Assembly (NCBI GenBank): GCA_030998225.1
Contig: JAPYXD010000704.1
Coordinates: forward strand, 4,898,001 to 4,962,000
DNA length: 64,000 nucleotides
Direction: 5' to 3'
Source of the DNA: Diplolepis rosae
Lineage: Eukaryota > Arthropoda > Insecta > Hymenoptera > Diplolepididae
In this document: piece after piece, positions 9,390 through 64,000 of the stretch
Numbering within the stretch: the stretch's first letter is position 1
Layout of the letters: every line of letters begins with the position of its first letter
The notes under the pieces: model-generated
The model's input: the letters and a program-made list of their open reading frames with translations, nothing else
What the model was told of the DNA's origin: nothing
Database searches by the model: none
Made by a program: the position numbers and the translations under genes

Positions 9390-10319
9390 GCAGAAATTAA
9401 TTCAAAGAAATTCCAGAAGGCGAAACGAGAGTCTCAAAATGCGTCCACCTCCAAATATTGAAGATACTCATTTATTAGTCCTTACCAAACCCTTATTGCA
9501 TATTTCTCATTTAGAATCATTTATTGTTTTTACCTTCTCTCATAATCTATGATCAATCCCAGGCCTACAACAAATACTTGTTGTCAGGGTTTTCTCCTGT
9601 AAATCTTATATACCGGTGCAAAGAGAATATTGTAACAGAGTTTTGATTGAGTTTTTATTCAATCAAAATTCTAGTGGTTCTTTCGCTCTGTAATGCGTAC
9701 GTGAGACGTTACAATAATAACAATAATAGATTTGGAAATTAGTGAGGTCCTTGAACTAAGAAGGCAAGCTTATAGACAGGAGAATCACCCCCCACGTCAA
9801 ATCGACCAAGTTAATATCGGAAGGGCCCAAAATGCGGGTATTTCGGAGAAACAAATTTCTGACGCTGAAACTATCATAATTGATTCAGAATCAGAAACTG
9901 AACAAATGCCAGAGTAATCCGATTCCTACACCGTCGAACTTTAAGACGCCAGACACGGTTCAAAGTCACCCTTTCTCTTTTTTTTTCTTCTACTCCTAGT
10001 GAGGACGAAATTTTGAGGCTCTTGAATTTGCCTCAGCTGAAATAATAATAAAACAAAGGTCACTGCAAGCTGAAGATTCTCAGTTCTAATAACAGGCCAC
10101 TATCAAGTACATTTTTGTTTCTCTCTTTCCCTTTCACCTGTATATTGTTTTTTTTTATGTGTGTGCATAAGTGTCTGTGTATATATATTCTATTATAAGC
10201 ATATCACTATACTCATATATTTTTCCACCCATAGGAACACAAAAACCTATTTAAAAATAAACGTTTACAACCTGTCAAAAATTCACGTCGAATTTTCCGG
10301 ATCCTCAGCACATTTTAAA

Positions 10320-11615: not shown

Positions 11616-11620
11616 TTAAG

Positions 11621-13678
11621 TTGAGTGCCCCTGAGTTCCGCAACAGCAAAACTAGTTTTCTTGTGGACCCAGGTTCGGACGTTAATTTAATTAAACTGAG
11701 CGCCTTGCGTCAAGAACTAATTCTTGATCCGAAAGGATCAATCCCGATCACCGGTATAACAAACCACCCCGTAATCACGATAGGCACCATCAACCTTTCG
11801 ATACTGAACACCTTAGTGGAATTCCATGCCGTGGAAAATAGTATCCCTATTTCACCAGACGGAATTCTAGGGAGACCTTATTTAAGGCAAGAACAGGCTA
11901 AAATTTCCTTCCGGCACAACGCATTAGTGACTGCTTCTAACCCTATCACACCGATTCCATTCATCGATCGAGAATCACAGGAAGCTAGAAAATCACTTAA
12001 AACCGAAATCAAACCTTTTTCCAGAATATTAAAAATTAGGGCTAGAACGAGGCAACATATTGCTATAAGCATCACAAACCCAGAGGTTGCTGAAGGCTAC
12101 CTGCCTAAGCTGAACACTCCTGAAGGGCTCTAACTTGGAGAGGCAGCAGTCTTGACACACAATAGCGTCTGTCACGCAATTGCCATCAATACCACTGAAG
12201 ACGATATAGATATAGAAATTGCCCCCCAGGAGGTCATACCGTTCGATTTCTGTACATTTCCCGGTGAAGAATCCGCTGACTCAGAACTCGAGTACTCTAC
12301 CCTAGGGATACAGGAACATCCGAGCTCTTATACAGAGCGTGCCGAAAGAGTAAAAAGGAACCTGCGCCTTTCTCATTTAAATAATGAAGAGAAGGATTAC
12401 GTCCTTAGGTGGGCAGATGAATACGCTGATATTTTTCACCTAAATGGCGAGAGACTTAGCAGCACTCATCTGATCCAGCACCGAATTCCAACAATGGATA
12501 ACGAAGTGATTGCCAATAAACAATATAGGTATCCTCACGATGCGACAGACCAGGTCATTCTGCAAACTGAAAGACAATACGACAGCGGGATTATTGGTGA
12601 CTCTAAGTCCCCTTACAATTCTCCACTTTGGATTGTCCCAAAAAACCTCGATGCCTCGAGAGAGAAGAAGTGGAGAGTTGTTATTGATTACAGAGCCCTC
12701 AACGAAAAAGTAATCGGGGATGCCTACCCCTTGCCCAACATCACAGATATTTTAGACCACTTGGGGAATGCACAGTTTTTTTCTGTGTTTGATCTGGCCT
12801 GTGGCTTCCACCAAGTAGAAACGCATCCCGACGATCGATCAAAAACGGCTTTCTCGACCCCCCGTGGACACTTTGAGTATCTGCGAATGCCAATGGGGAT
12901 TAAAAATGCTCCTGCTACCTTCCAACGCCTCCTGGACGTCGTTTTGAAGAGCATGCATGGGACCGAAGTTTTTGTCTATCTGGATGACATTGTTATTCAT
13001 TCAGAAACCTTAGAAGTACACGATACAAAAGCCAGAAGTCTGTTCAATAGACTAAGAGAAGCGCATCTAAAGCTTTAAGCGGATAAGTGTGAATTCTTAC
13101 GAACCGAGGTAGCTTATCTGGGCCATATAATCGGCCGTAATGGAGTTGAACCCAACCCCGCTAAGATAGTCGCTATTAGAAAATTCCCAAAATCGAGGAC
13201 CGTCCGGGCTATTCGACAATTCCTAGGCCTTTCAGGATACTATAGGAGATTTATAAAAGACTATGCAAGGCTAGCAAAACCCTTGTCCAATCTCCTGAAG
13301 AAGGACACAAAATGGGAATGGGGACGCTCGCAACGGAAAAGCTTCCGAAGAATACGCAGATACCTCTGCAGCGAACCCGTACTCCAATATCCCGACTTTA
13401 ACAAGCCCTTTAAGCTAACCACAGATGCCTCTGAGCATGCTGTCGGGGCTATGTTAACCCAAGAAAAGGATGGAGTAGATATGCCCATCGTCTACTTTTC
13501 CAAGGTGATGAATTCCTGCGAACAAAACTACTCGAAAGCAGAAAAGCAATGTCTGGCGGTGTTGTACGCTGTCACGAACTTTCGCCTATATTTATATGGA
13601 AGGGAGTTCGTGCTGGCCTGCGACTACGAACCAGTTCACTGGATGACTTATATTTATAATCCAGGATTACCAATGTAA
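11621..13678 (+). pseudogene. pol: Pol of gypsy-1: protease, RT and first RNase H, two in-frame stops
   Basis: One frame runs from the gag overlap to 13,678, broken by TAA at 12,131 and 13,076. Protease: FLVDPGSDVNLIK (D-P-G for D-T-G) and GILGRPYL. RT: QYRYP, YNSPLWIVPKK-like, RVVIDYRALNEK, SVFDLACGFHQ, FSTPRGHFEYLRMPMGIKNAP and YLDDIVIHS, with all catalytic aspartates. Then KCEFLRTEVAYLGHI, the RT thumb, and the gypsy RNase H with TTDASEHAVGAML (D), EKQCLAV (E) and LACDYEPVHW (D kept, but the His usual in TDHKPL is lost). The end is damaged by a small deletion and frameshift at 13,678, after which EYKQGKLNRGVEAL continues in another frame. Confidence 0.9.
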
Positions 13679-14156
13679 GTTTGAGTATAAACAAGGGAAA
13701 CTGAATAGGGGTGTTGAAGCCTTGTCAGGAAACCCTGTGGCTAACGAACAATGCTGAGAGTCTTCTGACTCAACTGACTCCTATGATTCTGACGATTCCA
13801 ATAAATCCTACAATTCTTCTTCCCTCCAAAACAACTCTGCAGACATTAAGAGCTCCACATCAGAACCTCCAGACATCCGAAAGATATTAGTAATAACGCA
13901 TTCCGGAGCATCGCGGGCAGAACCTAGTCGAGGTGAACCTTCCTCCACCAGTCAGGAACCCTCAGATTCTACTTGACGCATAACTTAAACAAAGAAATTC
14001 ATACAGTCGAAGAACCAATCTATTTCCAGATCCAGCGTGGAATCTGCGTTGCCACTAAGAAACAAAGAAAAACCTTCTGTACCCTGATCCATCCCCTTCA
14101 ACGCAGTAAGAACTAAACCCACAGTTTCTCCACAATCGTCCACCTCAACCGGAGCA
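13679..14156 (+). pseudogene. Acidic Ser-rich linker after gypsy-1 RNase H, frameshifted
   Basis: The end of the RNase H/connection region (GKLNRGVEALSGNPVANEQ) runs into Ser/Asp/Glu-rich low-complexity sequence with stops and shifts. It corresponds in place to the acidic linker of gypsy-5 at 57,000-58,430. Confidence 0.6.
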
Positions 14157-14783
14157 ATGCCTAAACGACGGGGAAGGCCAAGAAAGGATTCGGCTCCTGA
14201 AAATCCCCAAGCAGCTCACAAACCCCAAGGTGAACCAAAAGCAACCAACCTTGACGAACGTTGCATTGGTAAAGGACTTTCGAGACGAAGAGGAATTAGT
14301 GAGGCCCCAGTGTTAAACGAAAACTCTTCCAGTGATCCATCGTCAGATGACGAGGATAGTGACGACTCCGACCCCCCAGTGATTCGCGAATCCCGTAGTG
14401 TTTTGCCGAACTTAAAGTCAACTCTTGCAGCAAAAACGGACAAAACTGCCCCTAAAAGTGCACCCCCTAGACTTCCAGGTCCAAGCCCTTGGTCAGCCCC
14501 ATTGCAGGACACTTACATAGATGTTTACGTCGACGGAGCGTGCAGTTACAACGGACGTGGTGTACCAAGGGCAGGAATAGGAGTCTGGTTTGGACCTAAC
14601 CATCCGCTAAACGTTTCACGCCCCTCCCAGGGATGTCAAACAAACAACTCAGCCGAAATTGAAGCAGTAACCGTAACAGCTCAACAGGCTCACGAGGCTG
14701 GTATCAAGAAGCTGAGGATAAAGACTGATTCCAAGTTTTTAGTAAACGAACTTAGAAGCTCTCGATCCCTGTGGAGAATATGA
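14157..14783 (+). pseudogene. AT-hook linker plus second, RNase H1-like domain of gypsy-1, C-terminally cut
   Basis: The ORF starts MPKRRGRPRK, a textbook AT-hook (RGRP core), then an acidic Ser/Asp stretch. From about residue 120 it reads a domain unlike the pol RNase H upstream: DVYVDGAC (first catalytic Asp), GRGVPRAGIGVWFGPNHPLN, then QTNNSAEIEAV (catalytic Glu) and RIKTDSKFLVN (second Asp). The GIGVWFGPNHPLN strand and QTNNSAEIEA helix are the signature of cellular RNase H1, so this looks like a captured host-type domain. The last catalytic segment (the H-x-GHxG...N..AD part) is missing: the frame ends at 14,783 and other-frame linker sequence follows. It is therefore inactive as it stands. 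The role known from elements with dual RNase H is RNA-strand removal by the second domain. Confidence 0.8.
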
Positions 14784-14817
14784 CGACGTCGAGTTCTCCA
14801 ATAGAGTAAGGAACTTT

Positions 14818-15213
14818 TTGGAAAAATACGAAAAGGAAATAAGCAAGGAAGCATGCACACCACAAGATTGGGAAACCGCACCCAGTTCCTCTACAGGCCC
14901 AGCACAACCCGCAGGCGAACAGAGAACCACTGGGCAGATAATCAAGTCAACGGAATTTTCTGACAAAAATTCCGGGGTGGCGAGGAAAAGCATGGTCCGA
15001 TTTAAGGATGCTCCTGAGGAAATCGAATCATCTTCAGAGTCCCCAATAATTGGGAAACAGCCCCCCCCCCGAAGGTCCTTGCTCATGACCCCAGCAGCGC
15101 CTGCGACGCCAGGAGCCAGATTAATGCCCTTCACAAGGTCATTCATCGACCCAGATGAGGGTAGAAAGGACTCGATAGGAAAAGGAGCAGGAATGAAACC
15201 AAGAAGACTGTAA
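14818..15213 (+). pseudogene. Pro/Ser/Glu-rich linker of gypsy-1 pol
   Basis: An open stretch of 131 codons without domain motifs, rich in Ser, Pro, Glu and Thr, joins the second RNase H to the macrodomain-like segment. A run of ten cytosines at 15,061-15,070 is a likely frameshift spot. No catalytic motif is visible. Confidence 0.5.
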
Positions 15214-15291
15214 GAAACAAAACCATTTCACGAACCCGTCGAAGGTCCCATATCCCATCCTAGCTCCATCATTGACGTTAAGATACCGTAT

Positions 15292-17065
<1,774 letters not shown>

Positions 17066-49861: not shown

Positions 49862-50403
49862 ATAATAGTATATTACATGCCTAGGCACACAATGAGGGTT
49901 ATTGCGTGACGAGCGACAATGCTCGCAGGGGACCGAAGCCGAGGCGCGATCAGTCCTGCGAGCATTGTCGTGCGTCTCGCAATTTCCCGAATTGTGTGCA
50001 TTGGCACGTATTCTATTTTATGTGACTTTGGTGTGGATACGAGTTTTTATGCGTACACTCGAATCTAATCTAGTATTTTAGTTTCTTGCGGCGCTAGTCA
50101 TTACACTTGATATGTCACGACTAGTCCCGGCCATTTTGATTTTATCGATCTTGTGTAGTAGTAATGGATTCTAATAGACGCATGCGCAGTTCAAATGTAC
50201 AAGGCTTTGCCAGCAAGGTGCTAACGCTGTACGAAGAAGAAGTGAGAAGAAGAAGAATAAGAAAAAGATTGCGTTCCGCTGTAAGACTATATGCGCATAC
50301 GCAGTTCAATTTTTACACTGTATTCCTCTGTAGCGGAATACAGAACATTCCGTTACTCTCAGCTGTAACGGAAAAACGAGTTTCCGTGCCTGCGGCACAT
50401 AAA
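49862..50403 (-). repeat. Palindrome-rich interspersed repeat, copy C
   Basis: Reverse-strand copy, complete from AACTTTATGTGCC (50,403) to TAATATACTATTA (49,862). The long palindrome (about 49,880-50,015) has arms of about 48-50 bp that include GAGCGACAATGCTCGCAGG and a loop of about 25 bp. It is placed 45 bp downstream of the gypsy-5 polypurine tract, so it may be inserted in, or form part of, the 3' LTR. Confidence 0.75.
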
Positions 50404-50447
50404 GTTGATTAACTTAATCGTATTCGTGATAGTTACGGAACGTGAAA

Positions 50448-50464
50448 CCTCCCCCCTTTTGTTT
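50448..50464 (-). promoter_or_regulatory. Polypurine tract, probable plus-strand primer site of gypsy-5
   Basis: The reverse strand reads AAACAAAAGGGGGGAGG, the usual sequence type just before a 3' LTR. It lies 140 bp after the dsRBD ORF. The following bases (TTTCACGTTCCG) would start the LTR, but there is no second copy to confirm this. Confidence 0.55.
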
Positions 50465-50604
50465 GAACATGGGGATGAAATTAACATGTTCGAACTTATT
50501 TGTTAACTGTACTTAAATTTATGAGAAAAATGTGTAACATCGCGTGCAAATCATATATCTATCCGTATAAAATTTATTATCTTCTTTGACAAAAACTTTA
50601 AAAT

Positions 50605-51045
50605 TTACTCTACAAACTTTTTATTACGCTTTGGACCATGCCTCTTTACTGGTTTGTGACCTCTTTGATAACAACGCTCGCATGTAACCATCCATTTATA
50701 TAGTATAATTTTTTCGGAGTCGTTTTCTACAGTTATTTTCAAGTCATTTTCGGGCTCTCTTAGTTCACTAAATAAATAGTCTTTATATAAAAACTCTAAC
50801 AGCTTCCGTGCTGAAATATGCTTGGCTTCTTTTTTTGTTTTTGAATTTTCCCCTGTGCTTATGTATGTATTTAATCCTTTTTGGATTTCGCAAGTTGCTA
50901 CAAAAATTGGCATATGGCTCGACGTATTACATTGTATAATTTCGAATTTTGGGTCGCTAAAGTTGTATTCTAGGCTAATTTCGTACATAGTTTGTACTGG
51001 ACTATTGGTAATTGTAATATCTCTGGCTTTAAATTTTTCTCCCAT
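50605..51045 (-). CDS. dsRNA-binding-domain protein, accessory ORF of gypsy-5
   Basis: An open frame of 146 residues. Residues about 15-87 fit a double-stranded-RNA-binding domain: SPVQTMYEISLEYNFSDPKF (helix 1 and strand 1), a middle strand with MPIFVATCEI, KGLNTYISTGENSKT and KKEAKHISARKLLEFL (the K-K-x-A-K helix 2 that contacts the RNA backbone). The C-terminus has CERCYQRGH and a basic tail (KRHGPKRNKK), which could add RNA affinity. Free-standing dsRBD proteins of viruses often hide dsRNA from Dicer. Such a role here is inference. It follows another ORF by 48 nt, and the gypsy-5 polypurine tract lies next downstream. No stop or shift is seen. Confidence 0.78.
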   Translation of the reverse strand: MGEKFKARDITITNSPVQTMYEISLEYNFSDPKFEIIQCNTSSHMPIFVATCEIQKGLNTYISTGENSKTKKEAKHISARKLLEFLYKDYLFSELREPENDLKITVENDSEKIILYKWMVTCERCYQRGHKPVKRHGPKRNKKFVE

Positions 51046-51093
51046 TTTTTCTGAAACAAAAAGTTATTTTAAAGTTTCAAATACAGAATCATT

Positions 51094-51609
51094 CTAGACT
51101 ACATCATTTCCATCTGGATCATTTATGTGCATTTCATTCATAGTAGTTTCAAGTAAACAATGGTTTTTTACTTTAATTTCGTATCCTAAGTTTATTTTAC
51201 CAACATGATCCAAATATTGTTCAATACAGTCTAAACATTTGTGTGATGGTTGGAATCGCTGAAATATTTCTGTTTCGCAAAATTGACATTTTGTATTTAA
51301 TACTTCGTTTTTTACTATTGAGTGCCAGGAATTTTCAACGTTATAATTGAGTCGATAGGGAACATGTATTTGCAGATAACATAATTCGCAAACTTTAATC
51401 ATTGATATTTTGTGTACATATATTCGTTCTATTTCTGGTAATGCAGAAACACAAGAACAATTCAAGAGAATTTGATAATTTGTAGGGTAGTCTTGTGGAC
51501 AAACACCGTCAATATATCTTGGAAAATTGAATGGAAGATTCTCGGTTGTTGGAATCATTATATATGAAAAGTGATAAAATTGTGAGTTCAAGATATACTT
51601 TTCATTCAT
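51094..51609 (-). CDS. Cys-rich putative zinc-binding protein, accessory ORF of gypsy-5
   Basis: An open frame of 171 residues with paired cysteines: CSC near residue 51, KVCELCYLQIH (about 72-82), KCQFCETEIF (about 107-116) and HKCLDC (about 122-128). These suggest one or two treble-clef or ribbon zinc sites. There is no signal peptide or membrane helix. The C-terminus is acidic. Its stop lies 48 nt before the dsRBD ATG, a polycistron-like arrangement unusual for insect host genes but normal for viruses and retroelements. I do not recognise the family. A role with the dsRBD protein is possible but unproven. Confidence 0.55.
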   Translation of the reverse strand: MNEKYILNSQFYHFSYIMIPTTENLPFNFPRYIDGVCPQDYPTNYQILLNCSCVSALPEIERIYVHKISMIKVCELCYLQIHVPYRLNYNVENSWHSIVKNEVLNTKCQFCETEIFQRFQPSHKCLDCIEQYLDHVGKINLGYEIKVKNHCLLETTMNEMHINDPDGNDVV

Positions 51610-52190
51610 TCGATTCCTCTTTAAAGGTATGTAAAATTTCTACTAAGGTACGTATTTTGAATTTTGTATACAGATTGACTCTTGTGATAAGTTGATTTTA
51701 TTATGTGGTCTAATTTGTCATTATTTTAAATTATTAATAATAATAGGTTTAAATTTAAACCCATTATTATATAAGTATTCTAAGATCTTATTAATTTATT
51801 CGTTTGAATATTAATTTAAATTGACAAATTATTCTTTCTTCATATAAATGCAAATGTAAGGATTTTTGAATTTAGTGCTTTTAAATGTTTGATGAAATTG
51901 TCTTGCAGGTACTTTATCTTCAAATTTCTTTGCTTCTGTTGCTGGAATCGTTTCTGTGAGGAAATGATTTCAGTTATGTATTATGATTTAAACAAATGGG
52001 AGATGATATGTTTCTAAAAAAAAGTAAAATATGAAAAATCGTAGTGGAAAGAGAATAGTAGTGGGTTTTAGGTAAGGTGTGAAGAGTAAACACCGCATCA
52101 GGTCTGGGGATGGCTAGGCTATATGGCAGGAAGTTGGCTGATGATGCTTTTTTGTTTCTTTACATATTATTGAAGGGATGATAGCGGTTT
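51610..52190. other. AT-rich spacer between accessory ORFs of gypsy-5
   Basis: No coherent reverse-strand frame. Its left end may hold the leader of the zinc-binding ORF. Confidence 0.4.
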
Positions 52191-52200
52191 TATATAAAGA
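52191..52200 (+). promoter_or_regulatory. TATA box for the antisense ORF
   Basis: TATATAAAGA lies 224 bp before the ATG at 52,415. The start region between them is T/C-rich. Confidence 0.4.
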
Positions 52201-52414
52201 TCTCTATATCGTAGATAAAAAAGGGTTTCTAGTTCACGGTCTATTTGTTAATTTTATCTAAAATTGGTGTGAGTATGCAGTTCGAATTTGTATGGTGTCA
52301 GTTTCCAAAGTTCTTTCGTGCGTTTTATTTCGTGTCTTTTCGTTTTTCTTATGCTCGACTTTTTGAGTTTTGTGTTTATTTGACTTTTCTTTTCTTTTGA
52401 AAAAAAAAGAAAAA

Positions 52415-52996
52415 ATGTCGGGCAGTGACGTTATTTTGGACCAAATTTTAATGGATCTCGGTCTTACTCAAGAAACGGCCCAGGAAGAAGTTCCTGTAAT
52501 GGATGCAGAAGAGATGGATTTTTTAGTGGATTTTTTATCATTCGAGGGGTGTATTTCTAGTGAAAGTGTGTAAGATTTTTCTCTGGAAAATGCTTGTGAA
52601 CCCATAGATTTTGCAAGCATTGTAGAATTTCAAGACGTGAAGGTGGAAGATTTTCTTGAAAGTCGGTGTTCCTCTGAAGAGCTTTTAAATCGGGAAGATG
52701 TTCGTTCAAGGATGGAGCCCTTATTATCCGAAATGTGGTGTTTAACACCGTGGAAGCCGCAACCGTGTTCCTGTACATATAGTGTACAGTTTTCCTCCGA
52801 AACTTTTTATTTACCATCTTGGTGGATTCATTTTCCGGCGAAGCAGAGGGAGAATTTGGAAAAACTGGTTTGTTCGGAATATGTGAAATTGTATCGTCGT
52901 GGGACTTTATTCGTCGGAGGAGAGTGGTGTGCTTTCAATAGCGAAAAAATTCTGACCAGGGTAAGTTATCATTTTCATTATTTTTATGTAGTTTAT
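52415..52996 (+). pseudogene. Antisense ORF inside gypsy-5 with one in-frame stop and a splice donor
   Basis: ATG 52,415 (AAAAATGTCG) opens MSGSDVILDQILMDLGLTQE and an acidic, Leu/Phe-rich segment (AEEMDFLVDFLSFEGC) that resembles an acidic activation domain. TAA at 52,571-52,573 interrupts it. The same frame then continues with similar acidic sequence (VEDFLESRC) and an aromatic, Cys-rich part: LTPWKPQPCSCTYSVQF, YLPSWWIHFP and LYRRGTLFVGGEWCAF. At 52,960 AGG|GTAAGT is a strong donor, so the last codons to 52,996 may be intronic. The only downstream exon would lie in AT-rich sequence and was not found. It runs opposite to gypsy-5. It may be an antisense gene of the element, a captured host gene or an older insertion. 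Family unknown. Confidence 0.45.
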
Positions 52997-54076
52997 TAGT
53001 TTTATGTGAAAAAAAAATGACTCGAATTTTCATCAAATCATTACGTTTTGAGATCCTCTGAGTCAGAAAAACGGTTTTTTCGAAAGTGTCTGTCTCGATA
53101 GAATTATCAGATTGAATTGAGTTTTGGTACACTTTCTTGGAGCCGAAAAAGTAAGGGCTAGTTCGTTAACCAGCCACATCCAATCAAAATTGAGGGATTG
53201 GGCAGTATTGTTGTATTTTTGAAAATAACTTTTTGAAGAAAAATTCAAAAATTTCAATACTGGTTTTTGATAGTGCTCATAAATCTCTACAAATTATCCT
53301 GATAACATTTTTTGATTTAATCAAAATTATAAATGTTACAGCATACTAAAACTTGAAAAAAGTCAATATCAAAATTTCATTTTCCAGTTAAATTATACGA
53401 GATACGAAAAAACGTCATGATAAAATATTATTTTCTATAAAAAAACCTACAAATTTGAATTGTAATATTTTTTTATAAGATGTATATTTTTCTTTAAATT
53501 TAAAAAAAGACTATTGAAAATCCAAAAATTCAATTTTTTAACAATAATATGTGGAATACGAAAAAGAACGTCAGGATACAAAGTTGTTCGTTTCAAAAAG
53601 ATCTACAAATTTTGTCTCACACAGTTTTCGAGAAACATATATTTTTTCGTTTCAATTAAAAAAAAAAATACGAATAAAATTCAAGAATTCCATTTTTTAG
53701 ACGAAATATACATAAAAACGTTTAGATGAACTGAAAAAAAAAAATTTAGTGAATTTGAGAATCTGTGTGCGTAGTAATTTTTTAGAAATAAGTTAAAACT
53801 TGAAAGACTGCATTGTATTTAGGATTAGTGCGGAAAACTGTGTTTGAGGAAGATTTATATATAGTTAAATATATGATGTTTCTGGTGGTGTTTTTTTTTA
53901 ATATGTCGGTGTGATGATTTTATAAATTTATTCATAAATTTTTAATAGACTTTCAGAATGTTTCGTTAATATTGAAAGTAGTGTTAAAATCAGTTAACGT
54001 TTTATTTAAAGGGTGTGGTGATAAATATGAATAGTACTTTGACTCTTTAAAAATAATAATTATTTCTTCTTCAAGT
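52997..54076. other. AT-rich spacer, possible intron of the antisense ORF
   Basis: Only short motif-free ORFs on both strands. Nothing recognised. Confidence 0.4.
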
Positions 54077-54382
54077 TCAGTCATTTTTTATGAAATTGGG
54101 TAAAAATTTTGGGACGATAATTTTAATATCGTTAAATAAATAATAGATTTTTTCTATTAAATTCGCTGTTCTTAATTTCTGGCTAATGAATCTTTTGTGA
54201 CTATAATCTTTAATACAGTATATGTTTTCTTGAATGTTTCTGCAAAAATCAATGGCATTTTTGTAAATTTGGACTAATGAATTTTGCATATTTAATATTT
54301 CATATATGTCTAGATAGGACATTAAATGACTTTCTTCTTCAAAAAAATGTACTTTTTCAATTGCTATATTTCCTGTAGACAT
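54077..54382 (-). CDS. Unknown accessory ORF of gypsy-5, possibly the continuation of the CARD ORF
   Basis: 101 residues, helical and Lys/Ile/Phe-rich (YLDIYEILNMQNSLVQIYKN and IVPKFLPNFIKND at the end), with three cysteines at most. No family is recognised. Its frame is also open upstream of the ATG, through the 35-nt gap and into the end of the CARD ORF. One frameshift could therefore have split a single protein of about 200 residues with an N-terminal CARD. Alternatively the two are separate ORFs in a polycistron. Confidence 0.45.
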   Translation of the reverse strand: MSTGNIAIEKVHFFEEESHLMSYLDIYEILNMQNSLVQIYKNAIDFCRNIQENIYCIKDYSHKRFISQKLRTANLIEKIYYLFNDIKIIVPKFLPNFIKND

Positions 54383-54417
54383 TACTGTTTGATTTCCTTG
54401 ATTTTTGGTTTCATCAC

Positions 54418-54696
54418 TCAGTTGGGCATAACTAAAATTTCGGACAAAAATTTTTGATCAGATTGTCGTAAGCTTCTTAGTAAGTCGTAATATGCGTAAG
54501 GTCCTCTCGTTTTAATACTTAAAACTATGTCTTTAAATGTTTCTGGATTTGTTATGTTTTGAGACCAATTTGGTACGTTACAGTCGTAGTTAAATATTCC
54601 ACTAATAATTAAATATGGCCATAATGCCTTTATATCAGCTTGGCGAACGATTAAATCACACAATAAAACAATGCGTTTGCGATGTTTTTGTTCCAT
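54418..54696 (-). CDS. CARD-domain protein, accessory ORF of gypsy-5
   Basis: A 92-residue open frame whose whole length fits a caspase-recruitment domain. HRKRIVLLCDLIVRQ forms helix 1. A helix 2-3 region with ALWPYLIISGIFN follows, then FKDIVLSIKTRGPYAYYDLL (helices 4-5, with the conserved R-G-P-x-A-Y turn) and SLRQSDQKFLSEIL (helix 6). The RGPxAY motif and its spacing are like the CARD of the insect initiator caspase Dronc. No protease domain follows, so a stand-alone CARD could act as a decoy for Dronc/Dark-type assemblies (inference). The ATG lies 28 nt after the pol stop. The stop codon overlaps an ATG (TGATG). Confidence 0.72.
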   Translation of the reverse strand: MEQKHRKRIVLLCDLIVRQADIKALWPYLIISGIFNYDCNVPNWSQNITNPETFKDIVLSIKTRGPYAYYDLLRSLRQSDQKFLSEILVMPN

Positions 54697-54724
54697 TGTG
54701 ATCTGTAATCATTTTTATTTAATT

Positions 54725-54850
54725 TTAATTCTTTCTCCTCTGATTGGTTGCTGATGGGGTTATAGATGAAAGTATAAGTCTATTAATATTAACGATTTTA
54801 GGTTTATTTTTAACTGAAATTTTTATGTTTCCTTTGCCTAATATTTCAAG
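54725..54850 (-). pseudogene. pol: Last part of gypsy-5 pol, downstream of the transposon insertion
   Basis: The reverse strand reads LEILGKGNIKISVKN, KPKIVNINRLILS and ends at TAA 54,725-54,727. This is the small barrel-like tail typical after gypsy integrase (GPY...). It joins in frame to the part at 55,612 once the transposon and one TA are set aside. Confidence 0.85.
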
Positions 54851-54852
54851 TA

Positions 54853-55609
54853 AAGGGTTTCGCAATAGGGGTGATATGATTTTGAATGTCCCTATCGGGC
54901 TCATTTGAACTGAAATTTTTGACGTCTGCTGTCAGTTGTCATCAGTAAGGTTTGCCATTTAATCATGAGTAGTTTCACGCTTCCACAACGTTTGGAAATT
55001 GTCCAATTATTTTATCAAAATTCGAGAAGTTTTGTCGGTGTTCAAAGAGCATATCGTGCAAAATATGGTCGTCATTCTGCTCCATCCGCGCTCTCAATTC
55101 GTCGAATAATCGATAAGTTGGAGAGTGAATTTACTCTATTGGATACTAAGCCTAAAAATCGTATGCGTACCGCACGTTCTACACAGAATATAGCCGCCGT
55201 ACAGGCCAGTATCGAGGAAAACCGTGAATTGTCCGTGCCACGCCGATCTCAGGAATTGGGCCTGTCCAGGATGACTACCTGGCGTATTTTGCGATTGGAT
55301 CTTGGCCTGCATCCCTATAAGATGATTCTGGCCCAAGAACTGAAGCCTAATGACCATCGTTTGCGTCGGGAGTTCGCGGATTGGGCTCTGGAATCAATTG
55401 AAAATGATCCCAATTTTCATCAAAAAATCATCTTTTCTGATGAGGCGCATTTTTGGCTCAAGTCTCGGGGGACATTTGGCCGATATATTGTTTAAATCAT
55501 AAATGGCATAGAATATCCAATATAATAAAAAAGATTTCGATCAATTCCGAATGAATATTCAGTGTTTTTTTTCAATTTCAAAACATATCACCCTTATTGG
55601 GAAACCCTT
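54853..55609 (+). mobile_element. TA-flanked transposon with truncated transposase, inserted in gypsy-5 pol
   Basis: 757 bp. The inverted repeats are AAGGGTTTCGCAATAGGGGT left and, read inward from the right, AAGGGTTTCCCAATAAGGGT, with similarity over about 33 bp. TA stands at 54,851-54,852 and 55,610-55,611. Inside, a 176-residue forward ORF (54,965-55,495) gives the N-terminal HTH domains (LPQRLEIVQLFYQNSRSFVG, then RRSQELGLSRMTTWRILRLD) and the first catalytic Asp in FHQKIIFSDEAHFWL, then breaks off. The rest of the catalytic core is deleted. It is the same broad family as 23,830-24,756. Confidence 0.92.
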
Positions 55610-55611
55610 TA

Positions 55612-57000
55612 CTTAGTATGGTCCTGAATATTGATTTTCAAATTTCTTTAGTTCTCATCCTTCCAGTAAAAATACATTATCTCCGATTTTAAAATTTTGT
55701 AGATTAATTTTTCTGTCGTAATACTCTTTTAATTTTTCTTTAGGTGCAATTAAATTTTGTCTTGCTATTCCACGCATTTCATGTAATTTTGTAATCAATT
55801 TTGTCAAGTACATATCGTAAGTTTCTATTTTTTCATGTTCTGGTAGAGGACGCCGGATGGTAATCGTGCTAATTTTCCAAAAACTAATTCATAGGGTGTA
55901 CATTTCGTTCCCTCATGAACACTTGTGTTATATGAAAACATTGCTAGTTCAATCCAGTCATCCCATTCTGCATTATTTTCGATACATTGTTTAAGATATT
56001 CTTTAAGAACGTGATGGGATCTCTCCAAGGATCCGTTTGATTGAGGATCATAAGCAGTAGTCTTAAACTGACGTATTCGAAATCGTTTTGCCATTTTTCT
56101 GATTAAATTGCTTAGAAAATCTGCTCCTTGGTCTGTTAAGACCGCTTTTGGTGATCCATATATGCAGATAAATTTTTTGACAAAAGCGTCTGCTATTGTT
56201 ACAGCTTGGTGATTTGGGAGTGGGATTGCTAAAGAGTATTTAGTAAAATTATCCTAAATTGTAAGTATATATTGATTTTGTGATGAAGTTATTGGTAACT
56301 TCCTAACAATATCTATCGAAATTTTCTCTAATGCTGTTCCTGGGGTATCGGTAATTATCATAGGGTTTTTTGTTTTGACCCGAACAAGTTTTTTAAGTTA
56401 ACATTGTAAACAGAGTTGTATATATTTTTGTATGTCCAATTTCATATTTTCCCAATAGTATCTTTGTCTGATTGTATTATAAGTTTTTGTTACTCCTTTA
56501 TGTCCTCCAATTACAGATGAATGAGCTTCTTCAATTAATTGATTTCTTTGCTCTTTTGTAGGGTATTGTGTGATTCCATTACAAATTATTATTTTAATTG
56601 TTGAATCCAAAAATGCTATTTTTAATGTAGCCAAAATTTCTTCCCACTTAAAATTGTTAATGTGTGGTCATTTCGCAATACTAATTGATTTAATATTTAA
56701 TTCTTTTACCATGGAATGAAGGGAATAAATCGCTAATTTAATATCTTTAGTCGTTTCTCCTAGACTTGCCTTAAATTTGTCTTCTATTGGAAGTACAAAA
56801 TGGTATTGATTCCCCTTACGTAATTTTTGGACTATTCCTTTTTGTAAATTTTTAAAATTAGATAATTTTCCACATTTTTCCAAAAATTTAGAGCCTATAT
56901 CGCGAGGTTCTCCTTTATTGCTTACAAAATACGCATAATTATCTTTTCTCATCGTTAATTGGTCTCGGCATTCAACTATATTTTTCTGTGTACTAGTCAA
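55612..57000 (-). pseudogene. pol: Macrodomain-like segment and integrase of gypsy-5
   Basis: One reverse frame with stops at 56,668, 56,398, about 56,255 and about 55,660. Macrodomain-like part (56,943 to 56,575): DNYAYFVSNKGEPRDIGSKF, GIVQKLRKGNQYHFVLPIED, MVKELNIKSISIAK and FKWEEILATLKIAF, then a final strand IKIIICNG. This aligns segment by segment with gypsy-1 at 15,418-15,798 and in fold order with OARD1. Integrase: finger with EEAHSSVIGGHKGVTKTY and LCLQC, core with SIDIV (Asp), AVLTDQGADF (Asp) and SNGSLERSHHVLKEYL (Glu), so the D,D,E triad is kept. Then IGDNVFLLEG and YSGPY just before the transposon insertion. Confidence 0.9.
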
Positions 57001-58430
57001 TCCGGATGTTGACGGTTGATCAGGGGGTGGCTCTGGGGATGGCCTTTCTTCTGTAAAATCGCCTTCGTCAGAGTTTTCAGAATTCTCTATTTCTAGTATA
57101 TCCGGTTATTCGTTTTCGTTTCCATGTTCTACATTTTGAAAATTTTCCTGGATTTCTTCTTCGTTTTCTCTTGATAAGTCTGAATTTGATTCAAAATTTC
57201 TTCCTTCTTTAAATTCTTCTTTAAATTCTTCGTCTTCATTTACCTTAACATGTTTTTTCTTTTTATTTGCTTTAGGCTTTTGCTTAATATCATAATCTGC
57301 ATCAGAATCAGATTCGTCTTCTGATTCTATAAATTTACGTTTTCTATCATTCTTAGGTGATTTATTTATAACTTTTCTCAGTCTACCTCTTTTTTTAATC
57401 GGTTCATGTAATTTTACTTCTTGAATAATCTTTCGCGGCCTTCCACGCTTCTTTTGTACCTTATTCGTTACTTCAACATTTCTTAGTAGTTTATTTTAAT
57501 TAGTATCTTCATTTTTATCCATATTTATGTTTCTTAATTTTTTTAACTGACCCCTTGTTTGCATAGCATAACATTCTTTTTTATTTTCTTATAAAGTTGG
57601 AATCGAGTCCATAACGCATTTTAAAAATTGTGAAACAAATGTTTCCGAAATATTTTCTTCATTAATTGATTTGCAAAAAGCGATTCCATTTTCCTTATTT
57701 TTCATTTTATTCATTATTATATTAATTAACCTTTTATAAATTATATCAAATTCCTCGTCCAATTGTTCAGTAGTTTGTTCATTGTTTTCATATATTGCTT
57801 CTTTTTTGTATTCTTAAAATCTAATTCGATACAGCTTTTTCCATCCTTTTCATCATCATTTTTAAATAAGTATTCTTCTTTTAATAATTGTTTAATTCCT
57901 TAAGTGTCATTTCCATCAATTTTTTCTTCATTAAAATCATCATAATAGCGTTTATTAATATTTTCAAATAACGTTCCTTCGTATAATTCCTTAATTTCTT
58001 CATAATTTTCACAAATTTTTTGTTTCTCAATATCTTCATTATTTATGTCATCGTTTTGTTCCTTATTTTTCATATTCTTAATTAAATTTCCATCATTTAT
58101 CAGTATCTCTTCGTTTCCTCTTAAATAACTATAATCAGTACCTTCATCTTCAATAGCCTTATATTTTAATCCATCATAATTTCTTCGATTATTCTTATTC
58201 CTTAAAATTATTTTCTTCAATATTTCCTTCAATTATATCATAATCAATTTTTTCATAGCACTTAAGATTTGTTTCTGGTACTTTTTTCTTACATTTAAAA
58301 TCAGATATGCTTTTTGCATTTCTTTGTTCGATTGAATTTATTTCAATACTATTATTATTATTCATATCATCATTTTCAATATCGTCTAAATCAATAGGGT
58401 TTCTAGATAAAGCGTCTGCATTCACATTAG
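57001..58430 (-). pseudogene. Long acidic linker with AT-hooks between RNase H and integrase of gypsy-5
   Basis: About 470 codons of Asn/Asp/Glu/Lys-rich low-complexity sequence with several frameshifts. Around 57,380-57,460 it reads KKRGRPRK and, about 15 residues later, KKRGRLRK, two AT-hook motifs. Gypsy-1 has the same motif at 14,157. These could tether the integrase complex to AT-rich chromatin. Confidence 0.65.
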
Positions 58431-59889
58431 TTTTACCTGCTTTGTATGCAACATCAAAATCATATTCTGCCAGTTTTAGTTTCCACCTAGTTACTCGTGA
58501 GCAAGGGTCTTTCGAGTTTTGAAACCATACTAATGGTTTATGGTCTGTGACCAAGGTAAATTTTCGTCCATATAGGTAAGGGCGAAAATATGTTACACAA
58601 TAAATAATTGCTAATGCTTCTTTTTCATATGTATCATATTTTCTCTCACAATCATTTAATGATCTAGAAGTATAAGCTATAGGTTTATCTTTACCTATTT
58701 TACCTTGAGAAAGTATTCCCCCTATAGCGAATCCTGACGCATCAGTTGTTAAAATGAAAGGTTGTGAGAAGTCTGGTCTTTGTAAAAGGGGTTCTTCACA
58801 CAATTTTTCTTTTAGAAGTTCAAATTCCTCTTGCTGCTTTTATGACCAATTAAATTTTACATCTTTCTGTAAAAGTTGGTTCAAGGGTGTTGCAATTTTA
58901 GAGAATCCATCAATAAATCTTCTATAATATCCAGCTAGTCCTAAAAATTGCTTAATATTTTTAGGGTTTTTGGGGGTTGGAAAATTCTTTACTGTTTCTA
59001 TTTTCTTAGGGTCTGGGCGTACTCCTTCTTTGTCTATTATATGTCCTAAGTATGCGACTTCTGGACGTAAAAATTCGCATTTATCTGGTTGTAATTTTAG
59101 ATTTTCTGCGCTTAGTCTTTCCATCAGTTTGTTAAACTTTTCCTCATGTTCTTCTAAGGAATTTGCATATAAAACGATGTCATCTAGGTAGAAATATAAT
59201 TCAGTTCCTTGAAGTCCTGTTAAAACTAAATCCATTAATCGCTGAAAAGTAGCTGGTGCATTTTTCAAACCAAATGGCATACGGTCAAATTCATAATGGC
59301 CATAGGGGGTTGAAAAAGCCGTCTTATGTGAATCTTCTAGACTCATTTTTATTTGATGAAATCCTGAAGCAAGATCAAATACGGAAAAATATTGTGCTGA
59401 TCCTAATTGGTCTAAAATACCAATAATATTCGGTAGAGGGTAAGAATCTCCAATCGTTTTTTCATTAAGTTTGCGAAAATCGAGTACCATTCGCCATTTC
59501 CTATTTCCATGTGAGTCTAATTTCTTTGGTACTATCCAAACAGGTGTATTATATGGTGATTGCGAAGGTTTGATAATTTTATTATTGATCAGTTCATTCA
59601 CTTGTCGTGAAATCTCTTCTTTATGTACTGGAGGAAATCTATATTGTTTTGAAAATATAGGTTGATCATCTGTCGTTGGAATATTATGTTGTAAGACAGT
59701 TGTTGCTCCTAAGGGTTCTCCTGGTATATGAAAACAATCTGCAATTTTTTGGATTAAATTTTCAACATATTGCTTTTCTTCTCGATTTAAATGATCCAAT
59801 CTTAATAATTCTTTAATGGAATTTTCCCGATTTTTATTTGAAATGTTAAATGATTGATCATAATCATTTATTTTTGGAATCTGGTACAT
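58195..59889 (-). pseudogene. pol: Reverse transcriptase and RNase H of gypsy-5
   Basis: A single frame with one stop at 58,837-58,839. RT: KQYRFPPVHKEEISRQVNEL, YNTPVWIVPKKLDSHGNRKW, RMVLDFRKLNEKTIGDSYPL, YFSVFDLASGFHQI, FDRMPFGLKNAPATFQRL and YFYLDDIVLYA (intact Y-L-D-D). The thumb includes YLGHIIDKEGVRPDPKK and FLGLAGYYRRFI. RNase H: LTTDASGFAIGGIL (D), YEKEALAIIYC (E) and LVTDHKPLVW (D), with all three catalytic acids present, then GKTNVNADALSR. The upstream part (to about 60,060) continues pol with a frameshift. It is the best-preserved pol core in the window. Confidence 0.93.
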
Positions 59890-60059: not shown

Positions 60060-60459
60060 GTTGTAATTAGACAATTGCATTTCCTAAATAAACTCCATTT
60101 TATCGATGTAACTGTGGAATAAATCCCTGTTTTTGTTCACTGTTTTTAATCCTTACATAAAAATCTGAAATTGTTCTTGCTGGTACCAATATAGTTTCTT
60201 GCATTTCAAATGGGTAAATTTGATCATTTATTTCAAGCTGTTTTTCTGCATAATTAATTTATGCGTTATTGTTTCTGAACAATTCTGTACCTAGTATACT
60301 ATCATGTTCAATAGGTACTTCGTTCGGTATTATGTTGAGGGTAGTCAAGTAGCCGAAAATATTGATTGTTATTTGGCCAAGTGTAAATACAGGGTGTTCA
60401 TTTATACCTGTTAGCTTTAGACACTCAAATTTATTCATTTTCACATTTGTTTTGACTGG
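60060..60459 (-). pseudogene. pol: C-terminal half of gypsy-5 protease
   Basis: The reverse frame KFECLKLTGINEHPVFTLGQ, then HDSILGTELFRNNNA, gives the later strands and the I-L-G flap region of a gypsy aspartic protease. A stop at 60,259 and a second at about 60,106 interrupt it. The N-terminal part with the catalytic Asp is absent: the R1 insertion starts here at 60,463. Confidence 0.75.
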
Positions 60460-60462
60460 TTG

Positions 60463-62412
60463 TATAGACCAATATGTCTGTTGGATACGATGGGGAAACT
60501 TCTGGAGGAAATGATCCTTCAAAGACTACAGGGTCACATGGTTCGCGAGAATGGTCTCTCGGAAAACCAGTTCGGCTTTCGGAAAGGCAGGTCCACAGTT
60601 GACGCCATCCAGGCAGTGGTAGACATCGCTACTAAAGCAAGAAGAGGAACTGGTAAGCGTAAGGGATTCTGCGCGTTGATCAGCATTGACATACGCAATG
60701 CGTTCAATACCGCGAGATGGAACATCTGCATCGAGGCGATGGTGCGGAAAAAGGTTCCAGACTACCTATTGCGAATGATAGATGACTATCTGAGTGACAG
60801 GTGGGTGATATATGAGAGCGACAAATAGTCTCTCAACAAAGAGATGACATGTGGCGCCCCTCAAGGGTCGCGGGTGGGTCCACTCGTTTGGAACGTCATG
60901 TACGACGATTTCCTGCGCATAGACCTGCCTGCTCGAACGAGCATCATCGGCTTCGCGGATGAGGCACTTGTTGTGTGCGCTGCTGACAACGTCGGAATTC
61001 TGGAACTGAGGATTAATGATACTTTGTGTCGGGCAAAGCGTTGGTTAGATAGCAGAGGCCTGAAAATGGCCTCTGAAAAGACCGAGGCTTAGCTGGTCAC
61101 GGACAGGAGATCCTTCCAATATCCGAGGATCGTTCTCGGAGAACATGAAATCGAGTGGAAAAAGAGCATTAAGTACCTGGGAGTGCAGTTGGATCGAAGG
61201 CTTAGCTTCAACGAACACCTGCAGATCGCGACTGCCAAAGCCATCCGATGCGGGGCCGCCCTGACTCGGCTCATGTCCAACATTGGTGGACCCAGGGAAG
61301 CTAAGAGAAGGCTGGTGGCGAGCGTGGTAAACTCGAAGCTGCTTTATGCAGCTCCGATCTGGACAAGTGCCCTTAACAACCATGCTATCCTGAAGAAGCT
61401 GTTCTCGGCACAGAGAGGTGTGGTGATGAGAATTGTCTCAGCATACCGAATTGTCTTGACGTGTGCTGTGCTGGTCCTGGCGAGCGTCCCGCCAATTGAC
61501 TTATTGGCGGAGGAAAGACAGGAGACCTTTCAGCTTCGCAAGGAGCTTACCTGCGCCGACCTGCAGGAAATCGCTCGGGCGAAGGAGGCGATCCGCAAGG
61601 ATGGAAGGCGCAGACTCGTCGAGAAATGGCAGACGAGATGGCATGGTGACCAATCCGGGAGTTGGACACACCGTCTAATCCCGGAGCTCACCACCTGGCT
61701 GGATAGAAAGCACGGTCAAGTCGGCTTTTACCTGGCGCAAGCGCTTTCAGGCCATGGCTGCTTTAATGCCTACCTGAAGCGCTTCAAGAAAAGAGACGAA
61801 GAGTCGTGTAGCTACTGCGGTTCCCTTGTGGAAAATGCAGAGCACACACTCTTTGTCTGTGCCAAGTAGGGCGCGGAAAGGGAGGCCGTCGGTCGGGCAG
61901 TGGGCGCACAACTCACTCCTTACACGATGGTCTCTCTGATGCTCCAGTCTGAACAGATATGGATGTTTATCGAGTCATTCGTCACCCTGGTGATGAAGAC
62001 GAGGGAGCTCGATGGGCGTGCAGAGCGCGGAAGCAACGGGGGCCAGTAGAAATCGCATCGGGGCCTGCACCCACGGTCTTGCGTCTTCGGCGGACTTGGC
62101 TGTCAGCGTCGTTCAGGGGAGGGATCGCTTTATTCCTCCCCTGGCCGGCGCGGCTAGTCAGTCTGCCTAACGGGCGTGTGGCCGCGGATGGGAGTCCCGG
62201 GCGAACGGATGACGAAAGAGTCGCACGCGACTTTAAGCTGGAACCAACCACCCGTGAAGTTTAAAGCCGAAAGGCAGTTCCGTGGGCGGTGTATTGGTTC
62301 GAGAGAGGGGTTTTTTTGGTTTTAACAGGTATGCCTAGACCCGTGCTAGGAGAGCCCTGTACAACGTCTATTAAAGATTTCGCCATTTTTTCTCCTCACC
62401 AAGAAAAAAAAA
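60463..62412 (+). mobile_element. 5'-truncated R1-clade element inserted in gypsy-5 protease
   Basis: One forward RT frame with stops at 60,826 and 61,090. It begins YRPICLLDTMGKLLEEMI, then NQFGFRKGRSTVDAIQAVVD, ALISIDIRNAFNTARW and GAPQGSRVGPLVWNV. The catalytic box is GFADEALVV (F-A-D-E for F-A-D-D). After RT come KYLGVQLDRRLSFNEHL and the R1-type C-terminal finger CSYCGSLVENAEHTLFVC (CX2CX8HX4C). About 500 bp of GC-rich 3' UTR follows, ending in A-rich AAGAAAAAAAAA. ORF1, endonuclease and the RT N-terminus are lost, the usual result of incomplete target-primed reverse transcription. No target duplication was found. Confidence 0.92.
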
Positions 62413-62513: not shown

Positions 62514-64000
62514 TTAAGCCCTCCTTTGTGCATCCGTTCCGGGAAGGGCATTGGAGTTTTCCTGTTTATTAAATTCTTGTTGCTGTTGCTGTTGCTTTTG
62601 TTGTGGTGGTTGTTGTAATTGTTGATTCATATTAAATTGTTTGTTACAATTCCTAGATGTATGTCCTGGTGTGTTATATGAATAGCAAATAAGTTCAAAA
62701 TTCGGACCTGGATTTGGGTTCTGATTAAAATTTGGATTCTGATTTCTATTTTGATTGTAGTTTGCATTGTAATTTTGTCTTTGGTTGAAATAAGGGTTGT
62801 GATTGAAATTCCTGCTTCGATTGAATTTTTGACCTTGATTGAAGTTTTGACTTTGATTGGAATTTTGACGTTGAATAAGATTTCTATTGAAATTTGAATT
62901 TGGATTAAAATTTCTGTTAAAATTCGAATTTTTGTTAAAATTTCGACTTTGATTATTTGGAGTAGGATTGCGATACATATTTTGATCACTGCGATTAAAG
63001 TTTGGGCTTTGGTTGAATCTATTCGCTTGGGAAAAATTTGGGTGGGTTGGGGAAATATTTATGTCTCTATTATCGTTTCTACCTCCTGGTTGATTTAGGT
63101 TTTGCATCTGATATCTCTGTGAGGGTCTCCACTGAGTTCCCTGACCCTGCCTATTTCCATCGTATTGATTATTTTGTCTATTTAAGTTATTTCTCGACTG
63201 ATACCCTTGTAAGCTTTTGTTTGTTATTTGTTGAATATATTGAAAACAGGTTGCTGCTGTGTGACCTATTTTCTGACAGATTTGGCATTTAATTGGTTCT
63301 TCTTGCGCTAAGTTAATATTATTTGTTTTTGCGAATTCTCGGTTATTATGTGTTGATTTTTCAGCTTCTTGAAATAATGAATGTTGTCTGTTTCCTCCTC
63401 GTAGTTCGTTTCTGGCTGTTAAATTTCTTTCTTCTCGTATTGCTCTTTTTACTATTTGGACAAATTTACTGACTGTTCCTATTCGAATTTCTATTTCTGG
63501 TTTTAAACCTCAGAGAAAACAATCGATCGCGTCTCTTTCTAAGTTGTTTTCAAATTCAGCAGCTTCTTTACCATTATTATTTTGTTTATGACATTCGAGG
63601 ATTTCTGCTGCAATTTCCTGTATGCGTATTGCATAAGATAAAACACTTTCATTTTCCCACATATATATTCTGCCTAAATCTCCTTGTAGTTGGTATGCAG
63701 TTTTTGAATGGGCAAAAATGATTTTTAATTTCAAAATGAAGTCTTCTAAATTATTAAAATAATTTCCGATGATGCATCTCCTGGCTTCTCCTGTAAGTTT
63801 ACTTCTTAACAATTTTACCAAATTTACTTCTGCATTAGGGACCATTTCTTTGGCTTCTTTACAAGCTTCGATAAGAATTGTCAATGGTACTTTACTTGAT
63901 CCGTCAAAATATGGAATAATCTCTAAAGCATCTCGTAGAGATACTTGTTGTTTTGTCGGTAAATTCATTTCGGTAGGTTGTGTTGGTAAATTATTTGGCA
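62514..64000 (-). pseudogene. gag: Gag of gypsy-5, prion-like C-terminus, runs off the right edge
   Basis: One frame with a single TGA at 63,510-63,512. The capsid-like part (63,968 to about 63,400) reads QVSLRDALEIIPYFDGSSKV, LLRSKLTGEARRCIIGNYF and YMWENESVLSYAIRIQEIA. A zinc knuckle CQICQKIGHTAATC (CX2CX4HX4C) follows near 63,270. Then about 130 residues are built of Asn/Phe/Gln repeats (NFNRN-, NPNFNQ-like), a second, damaged knuckle CYSYNTPGHTSRNC (Cys to Tyr), and a polyGln tail. It ends at TAA 62,514-62,516, and the pol frame (LNEQLNAPNFIEIKTEKVNL) continues in the -1 phase. The frame is also open upstream of the first Met to the window edge, so the true start lies outside. Confidence 0.9.

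What the first reader, a model, noticed from the sequence alone, without database searches (positions are those of the whole stretch)
50448..54727. Gypsy element with a 4.3-kb accessory region holding CARD and dsRBD genes
Directly seen: the pol stop at 54,725 is followed after 28 nt by a CARD-like ORF, then an unknown ORF, a Cys-rich ORF and a dsRBD ORF, all on the pol strand, then a polypurine tract. Known: the region after pol in gypsy elements usually holds env or nothing; CARDs act in apoptosis signalling and dsRBDs can suppress RNAi. Inferred: the element carries immunity-modulating genes like a virus would. I know of no described retrotransposon with this pair.
Basis: partly seen in the sequence, partly recalled or inferred. 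Interest (0 to 1): 0.93.

Follow-up and report, generated by a model that had tools for sequence, protein, structure and literature searches.

The report
Insect retrovirus carrying predicted immunity-decoy genes
This stretch is the worn-out tail of a retrovirus-like gypsy element in what is probably a wasp- or bee-like insect; related copies in the same genome hold up to two membrane-fusion envelope genes beside a CARD (a cell-suicide signalling domain) and several double-stranded-RNA-binding domains, which are predicted to block cell suicide and RNA interference the way a true virus would.

The parts
50433..50447 (-). Start of the 3' LTR (TTTCACGTTCCGTAA here); its far end was not determined
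   Evidence: PPT followed directly by T[GTA]TCAC in 26 of 30 dsRBD loci, 23 of them TGTCACG; not by this pattern in L003, L022, L024, L029; same junction in L061, L062, L068, L069
50448..50460 (-). Polypurine tract AAAAGGGGGGAGG
50605..51045 (-). dsRBD ORF, 146 aa; most relatives end in a C-x2-C-x4-H-x4-C knuckle such as CERCYQRGHKPVNC, whose last Cys is lost here
   Evidence: PF00035 E 1.5e-8; capped 150 matches in own genome; knuckle in 28 of 30 loci, not in L001 (the window) or L028; alignments
51051..51062 (-). Splice-acceptor-like TTTTTGTTTCAG, 5 nt before the dsRBD ATG
   Evidence: motif in 27 of 31 dsRBD copies against 313 of 4387 other ATGs
51094..51609 (-). Cys-rich ORF (CYS), 171 aa; a Cys/His pattern that would fit two zinc sites; no significant known family
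   Evidence: invariant C53, C74, C77, H96, C108, C111, C125, C128 in six sequences of A5; Pfam only E 0.38 and worse for the window, 0.0047 and under cut-off for L005; solved structures E 0.076 at best
52000..53950 (.). Insert (edges approximate) that separates ORF2 from CYS; holds an unrelated + strand ORF 52574-52999; source not identified
   Evidence: gap ORF2-CYS is 2.47 kb here and 0.53 kb in L029; no Pfam match
54077..54382 (-). 'Unknown ORF' (ORF2): likely remnant of the 5' part of the F-type envelope gene
   Evidence: 33% to L061:734-1015, E 5e-9, where F_L064 also aligns; colinear with the N-terminus of the F protein in L067, E 0.003
54418..54696 (-). CARD ORF, 92 aa, CARD alone
54703..54709 (-). 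Splice-acceptor-like ATTACAG, 6 nt before the CARD ATG
   Evidence: motif in 31 of 33 CARD copies
54725..54727 (-). pol stop codon TAA
54848..55614 (+). Mariner-like element (label recalled) inserted in the integrase C-terminal part: terminal inverted repeats and a DUF4817 helix-turn-helix ORF 54965-55495
   Evidence: inverted repeats; PF16087 E 7e-13
55825..56253 (-). Integrase core of pol
   Evidence: PF00665 E 2.4e-8
58195..58839 (-). RNase H of pol
   Evidence: PF17917 E 3.4e-39
58840..59889 (-). Reverse transcriptase of pol
   Evidence: PF00078 E 3.8e-38
62514..63509 (-). Likely gag part with a CCHC knuckle; a non-LTR-type reading lies between it and pol
   Evidence: PF00098 E 9e-4, just under its cut-off; position read

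Best explanation
The block is the 3' accessory region of a degraded, likely once envelope-bearing Ty3/gypsy retrovirus-like element, whose CARD-only protein would act as a decoy of the apoptosome and whose dsRBD proteins likely shield its RNA from Dicer-type RNA interference. Shown: related copies in this genome follow pol with CARD, then a chuvirus-type fusion glycoprotein (G) and/or a baculovirus-F-type envelope (F), dsRBD and dsRBD-CCHC ORFs, Cys-rich ORFs, a polypurine tract and an LTR start. Shown: CARD, dsRBD and CYS are under purifying selection between subfamilies. Inferred: the CARD descends from the prodomain of a Dronc/caspase-9-like initiator caspase of a hymenopteran host, taken up without its intron. 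Inferred: free CARD binds the Dark/Apaf-1-type CARD, keeps pro-Dronc from docking, and so keeps an infected follicle or germ cell alive. Inferred: the dsRBDs sequester long dsRNA or siRNA, or compete with Loqs/R2D2-type Dicer partners. Inferred: CARD, G and dsRBD are each made from a spliced subgenomic mRNA, so the element would work like a complex retrovirus. The window copy itself has lost env and is not expected to be functional.
Confidence: 0.55

Rival explanations
1. The accessory proteins serve replication or assembly, not immunity: dsRBD-CCHC proteins act as extra nucleocapsid-like RNA chaperones and the CARD is a self-assembling scaffold.
For: dsRBD ORFs end in a retrovirus-type CCHC knuckle in 28 of 30 loci; gag-like CCHC also present; CARD filaments are among the solved matches.
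Against: Gag already has a knuckle; a copy with about four dsRBD-like domains (L063, L068) is more than packaging should need; by sequence profile the CARD is closest to initiator-caspase prodomains, though by fold alone MDA5 and RIG-I CARDs score nearly as well.
Confidence: 0.2
2. The CARD turns death or NF-kB-like signalling on rather than off, for example to free particles or to provoke a host response.
For: Initiator-caspase CARD fold; CARD-only proteins can act either way (recalled).
Against: The ORF is a CARD alone; a germline element that kills its cell should lose transmission (reasoning); purifying selection over several subfamilies.
Confidence: 0.12
3. Passenger host sequences caught by an element, kept only because copies are young.
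For: Many copies with equal scores; dN/dS about 0.48 in close pairs; frequent internal deletions.
Against: Open frames persist at 53-62% identity to the window CARD; median dN/dS 0.12-0.19 for CARD and dsRBD across subfamilies; order CARD...dsRBD-PPT-LTR kept across subfamilies.
Confidence: 0.06
4. CARD and dsRBD ORFs are an unrelated virus or element that landed beside pol in the window.
For: The window region does hold other insertions.
Against: Same order, strand and near-fixed spacing in many copies; no relative confirmed in viral contigs.
Confidence: 0.02

Closest known systems
Errantiviruses and other env-bearing Ty3/gypsy elements of insects (PMC13172572, passages read)
   Same: gag-pol-env plan, F-type env related to baculovirus F; passages also mention gypsy regions with type III fusion glycoproteins in mosquitoes
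   Different: Extra CARD, several dsRBDs and Cys-rich ORFs; some copies carry two unrelated envelopes. The passages read do not mention these
Anakin: BEL/Pao elements with chuvirus glycoprotein in mosquitoes (PMC7642597, passages read)
   Same: Envelope of the chuvirus type after pol
   Different: Backbone here looks Ty3/gypsy, with accessory genes; the passages read describe none
Jingchuvirales-derived glycoproteins in arthropod genomes (PMC10084718, passages read)
   Same: Reports glycoprotein copies next to Gypsy fragments in Hymenoptera and two cases within complete transposon boundaries
   Different: States 'no clear evidence' of capture by Gypsy or Copia; no CARD or dsRBD in the passages read
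MDG1-group sORF1/sORF2 of Drosophila (PMC11952523, abstract and passages read)
   Same: LTR retrotransposons with conserved small accessory ORFs outside gag-pol
   Different: Those lie upstream of gag, sORF2 is a membrane fusogen and sORF1 a putative helix-turn-helix
Bdelloid rotifer LTR elements with varied ORF3 (PMC5408684, abstract read)
   Same: Capture of non-envelope ORFs (esterase, DEDDy exonuclease) and modules shared between elements
   Different: The abstract names no CARD and no dsRBD
IIV-6 dsRNA-binding RNAi suppressor (PMC4231766, title and start of abstract in search listing)
   Same: An insect-virus dsRNA-binding protein that counters RNAi
   Different: DNA virus; no sequence comparison made here
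CARD-only proteins and initiator-caspase CARDs (Dronc, caspase-9, CED-3)
   Same: Six-helix CARD; closest solved sequences are initiator caspases
   Different: Encoded alone by a retroelement; binding partner not tested

Membership tests
Env-bearing Ty3/gypsy retrovirus-like element (Metaviridae) | RT, RNase H and rve integrase on one strand in gypsy order | tested here: met
   PF00078, PF17917/PF17919, PF00665. The BEL/Pao marker Peptidase_A17 (recalled) was not among the hits for the pieces scanned
Env-bearing Ty3/gypsy retrovirus-like element (Metaviridae) | 3' polypurine tract next to an LTR beginning TG | tested here: met
   PPT then TGTCACG in 23 of 30 dsRBD loci, TTTCACG in the window; also L061, L062, L068, L069
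Env-bearing Ty3/gypsy retrovirus-like element (Metaviridae) | Two matching LTRs and target-site duplication | not tested
   5' LTR lies beyond the window; complete copies were not fetched
Env-bearing Ty3/gypsy retrovirus-like element (Metaviridae) | Envelope gene after pol | tested here: met
   In relatives: PF24664 and PF12259; only a likely remnant in the window copy
CARD | Sequence match to the CARD family | tested here: met
   16 of 18 members at E up to 1, best 4.8e-7; L061 above the curated cut-off; window, L063 and L064 under it
CARD | Six-helix CARD fold | tested here: met
CARD | Homotypic CARD-CARD binding to Dark/Apaf-1 | not testable with these tools
   needs a binding assay
dsRBD | PF00035 above gathering score | tested here: met
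   35.5 bits against 23 for the window; tandem 50.3 bits in L063 and 35.1 in L065, but 13.8 in L064 and 18.2 for the second L063 ORF, 20.3 in L061
dsRBD | dsRNA binding | not testable with these tools
   KKEAK stretch present in the window ORF; its role in RNA contact is recalled
Anakin (BEL/Pao plus chuvirus G) | Chuvirus-type glycoprotein after pol | tested here: met
   in relatives
Anakin (BEL/Pao plus chuvirus G) | BEL/Pao pol | tested here: inconclusive
   pol domains match gypsy-type models; no RT tree with BEL/Pao references was made
MDG1 sORF2 elements | Accessory ORFs upstream of gag | tested here: not met
   the accessory ORFs described lie after pol; the region upstream of gag was not looked at

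The most novel reading that the evidence does not exclude
Insects have their own complex retroviruses: gypsy-type elements that arm themselves with a stolen caspase-prodomain decoy, a stack of up to four dsRNA-binding RNAi suppressors and two unrelated fusogens (chuvirus-type G and baculovirus-type F), several of them expressed by splicing, a counterpart of the accessory-gene strategy of vertebrate lentiviruses.
Probability: 0.45. Interest if true: 0.95.

Novelty: new variant of a known kind. Interest (0 to 1): 0.86.

Why it matters
Vertebrate complex retroviruses counter host immunity with accessory genes; insect gypsy viruses are usually described as gag-pol-env (recalled), with small ORFs in the MDG1 group (PMC11952523) as an exception. 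A family with a caspase-type CARD and several dsRBDs would make it directly testable whether insect endogenous retroviruses fight apoptosis and RNAi, and whether host genes were captured to do so. Copies with both a chuvirus-type and an F-type envelope raise the question of why one element keeps two fusogens. It also gives repeated, positional evidence for a chuvirus-type glycoprotein inside a gypsy element, which PMC10084718 looked for without clear evidence and PMC13172572 mentions for mosquitoes. One practical point: small 'caspase-9-like' or uncharacterised proteins in hymenopteran annotations may in part be such element ORFs.
Full report
What is there. The window lies in a 757.7-Mb, 428-contig genome. 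On the minus strand a gypsy-type element can be followed: a gag-like CCHC ORF (62514-63509), reverse transcriptase, RNase H, integrase, pol stop at 54727-54725, CARD ORF, an unknown ORF, a Cys-rich ORF, a dsRBD ORF, polypurine tract and the start of an LTR. The copy is dead: a non-LTR-type reading splits gag from pol, a mariner-like element sits in the integrase, and about 1.9 kb of other sequence lies between the unknown and the Cys-rich ORF.

Is it part of the element? The dsRBD ORF, the CARD ORF and the integrase piece each gave the capped 150 matches in the same genome. Of the best 30 matches each (window included), 23 dsRBD and 27 CARD matches have no stop inside. Of 150 CARD matches 30 have a dsRBD match within 12 kb downstream on the same strand, 2 in the reverse order and 0 on the other strand. 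Of 150 integrase matches 61 have a CARD match within 3 kb downstream (395-1407 nt, median 420), 45 a dsRBD match within 9 kb, 14 both, 58 neither; controls: CARD upstream 0 and opposite strand 0, dsRBD upstream 1 and opposite strand 0. All lists are capped, so these are lower bounds. In 26 of 30 CARD loci a stop codon lies 28 nt before the CARD start, as in the window. In 26 of 30 dsRBD loci a polypurine tract is followed directly by a T[GTA]TCAC start, 23 of them TGTCACG. Four of the 58 integrase copies without a match were read: three begin with 43-57 residues of CARD after pol and are then deleted, one is broken inside pol and runs into a TGTCACG start.

What relatives have. I read the region after pol, or parts of it, in further copies. 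In 25 of 29 other CARD loci (L032-L060) a G-type envelope match follows CARD; the exceptions are L034, L035, L048 and L059. It is PF24664, Monjiviricetes fusion glycoprotein: E 8.5e-180 for a 469-aa piece of L054, 4.1e-252 for an open 670-aa ORF in L064. L061 instead has F-type envelope pieces, one PF12259 at 2.8e-9, the other without a Pfam hit. In the C413 copy (L063, L067, L068) the order is CARD, G (in two frames; 60-67% to the other G pieces), tandem dsRBD 243 aa, dsRBD-CCHC 194 aa, F (588-aa reading, PF12259 5.8e-19), CYS, a second Cys-rich ORF, dsRBD-CCHC 149 aa (by similarity, 39-46%), PPT, LTR start. In the C427 copy (L064, L066, L069) it is CARD, G, a 230-aa ORF with a weak dsRBD match, F in two pieces, CYS, a second Cys-rich reading, dsRBD-CCHC, PPT, LTR start. 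The F pieces of C427 have no Baculo_F hit of their own; they are called F by similarity to L067 (E 3.5e-28) and L061 (E 2e-11). The C408 copy (L053, L065, L062) has CARD, G, tandem dsRBD, an ORF whose end carries a knuckle, and a dsRBD match with stops, then PPT and LTR start. The tandem dsRBD ORF matches PF00035 twice (3.7e-13 in L063, 2.1e-8 in L065) but once and only at 0.089 in L064; the second dsRBD ORF of L063 is at 0.0038. The window's unknown ORF matches the 5' envelope zone of L061 (33%, 5e-9) and, weakly, the N-terminus of the L067 F protein (0.003), so it is likely an F-envelope remnant. A further class has open pol readings and an open dsRBD but, where seen, a truncated CARD, and no envelope match in the stretch read.

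The dsRBD. The window ORF is PF00035 at 35.5 bits. A C-x2-C-x4-H-x4-C knuckle ends the protein in 28 of 30 loci; the window copy has lost its last Cys. The tandem dsRBD's best solved matches are Loquacious (0.018) and R2D2 (0.56), too weak for more than membership of the dsRBD fold.

Selection and expression. Nei-Gojobori dN/dS on chosen open copies (30 CARD, 17 dsRBD, 10 CYS, 4 G; copies with stops left out, dsRBD, CYS and G copies picked by hand) gives medians of 0.18 (214 pairs) and 0.12 (108 pairs) for CARD at pS 0.15-0.4 and 0.4-0.65, 0.16 (17) and 0.19 (70) for dsRBD, 0.13 (3) and 0.16 (14) for CYS, 0.09 (2) for G at pS 0.15-0.4. Close pairs give about 0.48 for CARD (65 pairs, up to 1.1) and 0.46 for dsRBD (14 pairs, up to 1.6), as expected of decaying copies. 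Pairs at pS above 0.65 are near saturation (medians 0.16-0.30). A TT-YAG motif 2-13 nt before the start codon is found for CARD 31 of 33, G 14 of 14, dsRBD 27 of 31, CYS 1 of 6, tandem dsRBD 0 of 3, one of one each for the second Cys-rich ORF and the second dsRBD ORF, and 313 of 4387 other ATGs. Copies are not independent and the motif was chosen after inspection, but it recurs in L063 and L064, whose CARDs are only 53-55% identical to the window's.

How it likely works. Env-carrying gypsy elements in insect ovaries are held down by piRNAs (PMC13172572, passages); that siRNA silencing and cell death also limit such viruses is recalled. A CARD without a caspase, closest to initiator-caspase prodomains, is best read as a decoy of the Dark-Dronc platform; dsRBD proteins as dsRNA-masking suppressors, of which IIV-6 provides an insect-virus precedent (PMC4231766, listing). 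These steps are inferred. Rivals are listed separately.

Novelty. Gypsy elements with F-type env and BEL/Pao elements with chuvirus G are known. PMC10084718 reported glycoprotein copies beside Gypsy fragments in Hymenoptera but no clear evidence for capture by Gypsy; PMC13172572 mentions gypsy regions with type III fusion glycoproteins in mosquitoes. Accessory ORFs are known in MDG1 elements (PMC11952523) and rotifers (PMC5408684). A CARD, multiple dsRBDs, or two unrelated envelopes in one element were not seen in ten searches, but a directly relevant survey (Chary and Hayashi 2025) could not be read. I therefore call it a new variant of a known kind.

Noticed in passing
54848-55614: Mariner-like element (label recalled) with about 40-nt inverted ends and a DUF4817 helix-turn-helix ORF, nested in the integrase end
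   Followed up: partly
52000-53950: About 1.9 kb inserted sequence with an unidentified + strand ORF (52574-52999) whose reading runs into a donor-like GTAAGT after 'EKILTR'
   Followed up: no
60421-61869: Non-LTR-type RT readings on the + strand, nested between gag and pol; similar readings also sit in L080 and L055
   Followed up: no
10074-16479: A second gypsy element (+ strand) whose pol ends in a long GA microsatellite (Glu-Arg repeat readings)
   Followed up: no
49869-50015: Two 61-nt inverted arms, 80% complementary, 25 nt apart, beyond the LTR start
   Followed up: no
L024, L081, L082, L083; C195 and C204 places: Class with open pol readings nearby, a CARD cut at about 43-66 residues and no envelope match in the stretch read; several keep an open dsRBD. 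A likely cell-bound derivative of an infectious lineage
   Followed up: partly
one search list: Dozens of CARD copies with the same 94.2-bit score and no stops, suggesting a recent burst of one subfamily
   Followed up: no
56668-57495: Long charged linker with an AT-hook match between RNase H and integrase; a similar reading occurs in L025
   Followed up: no
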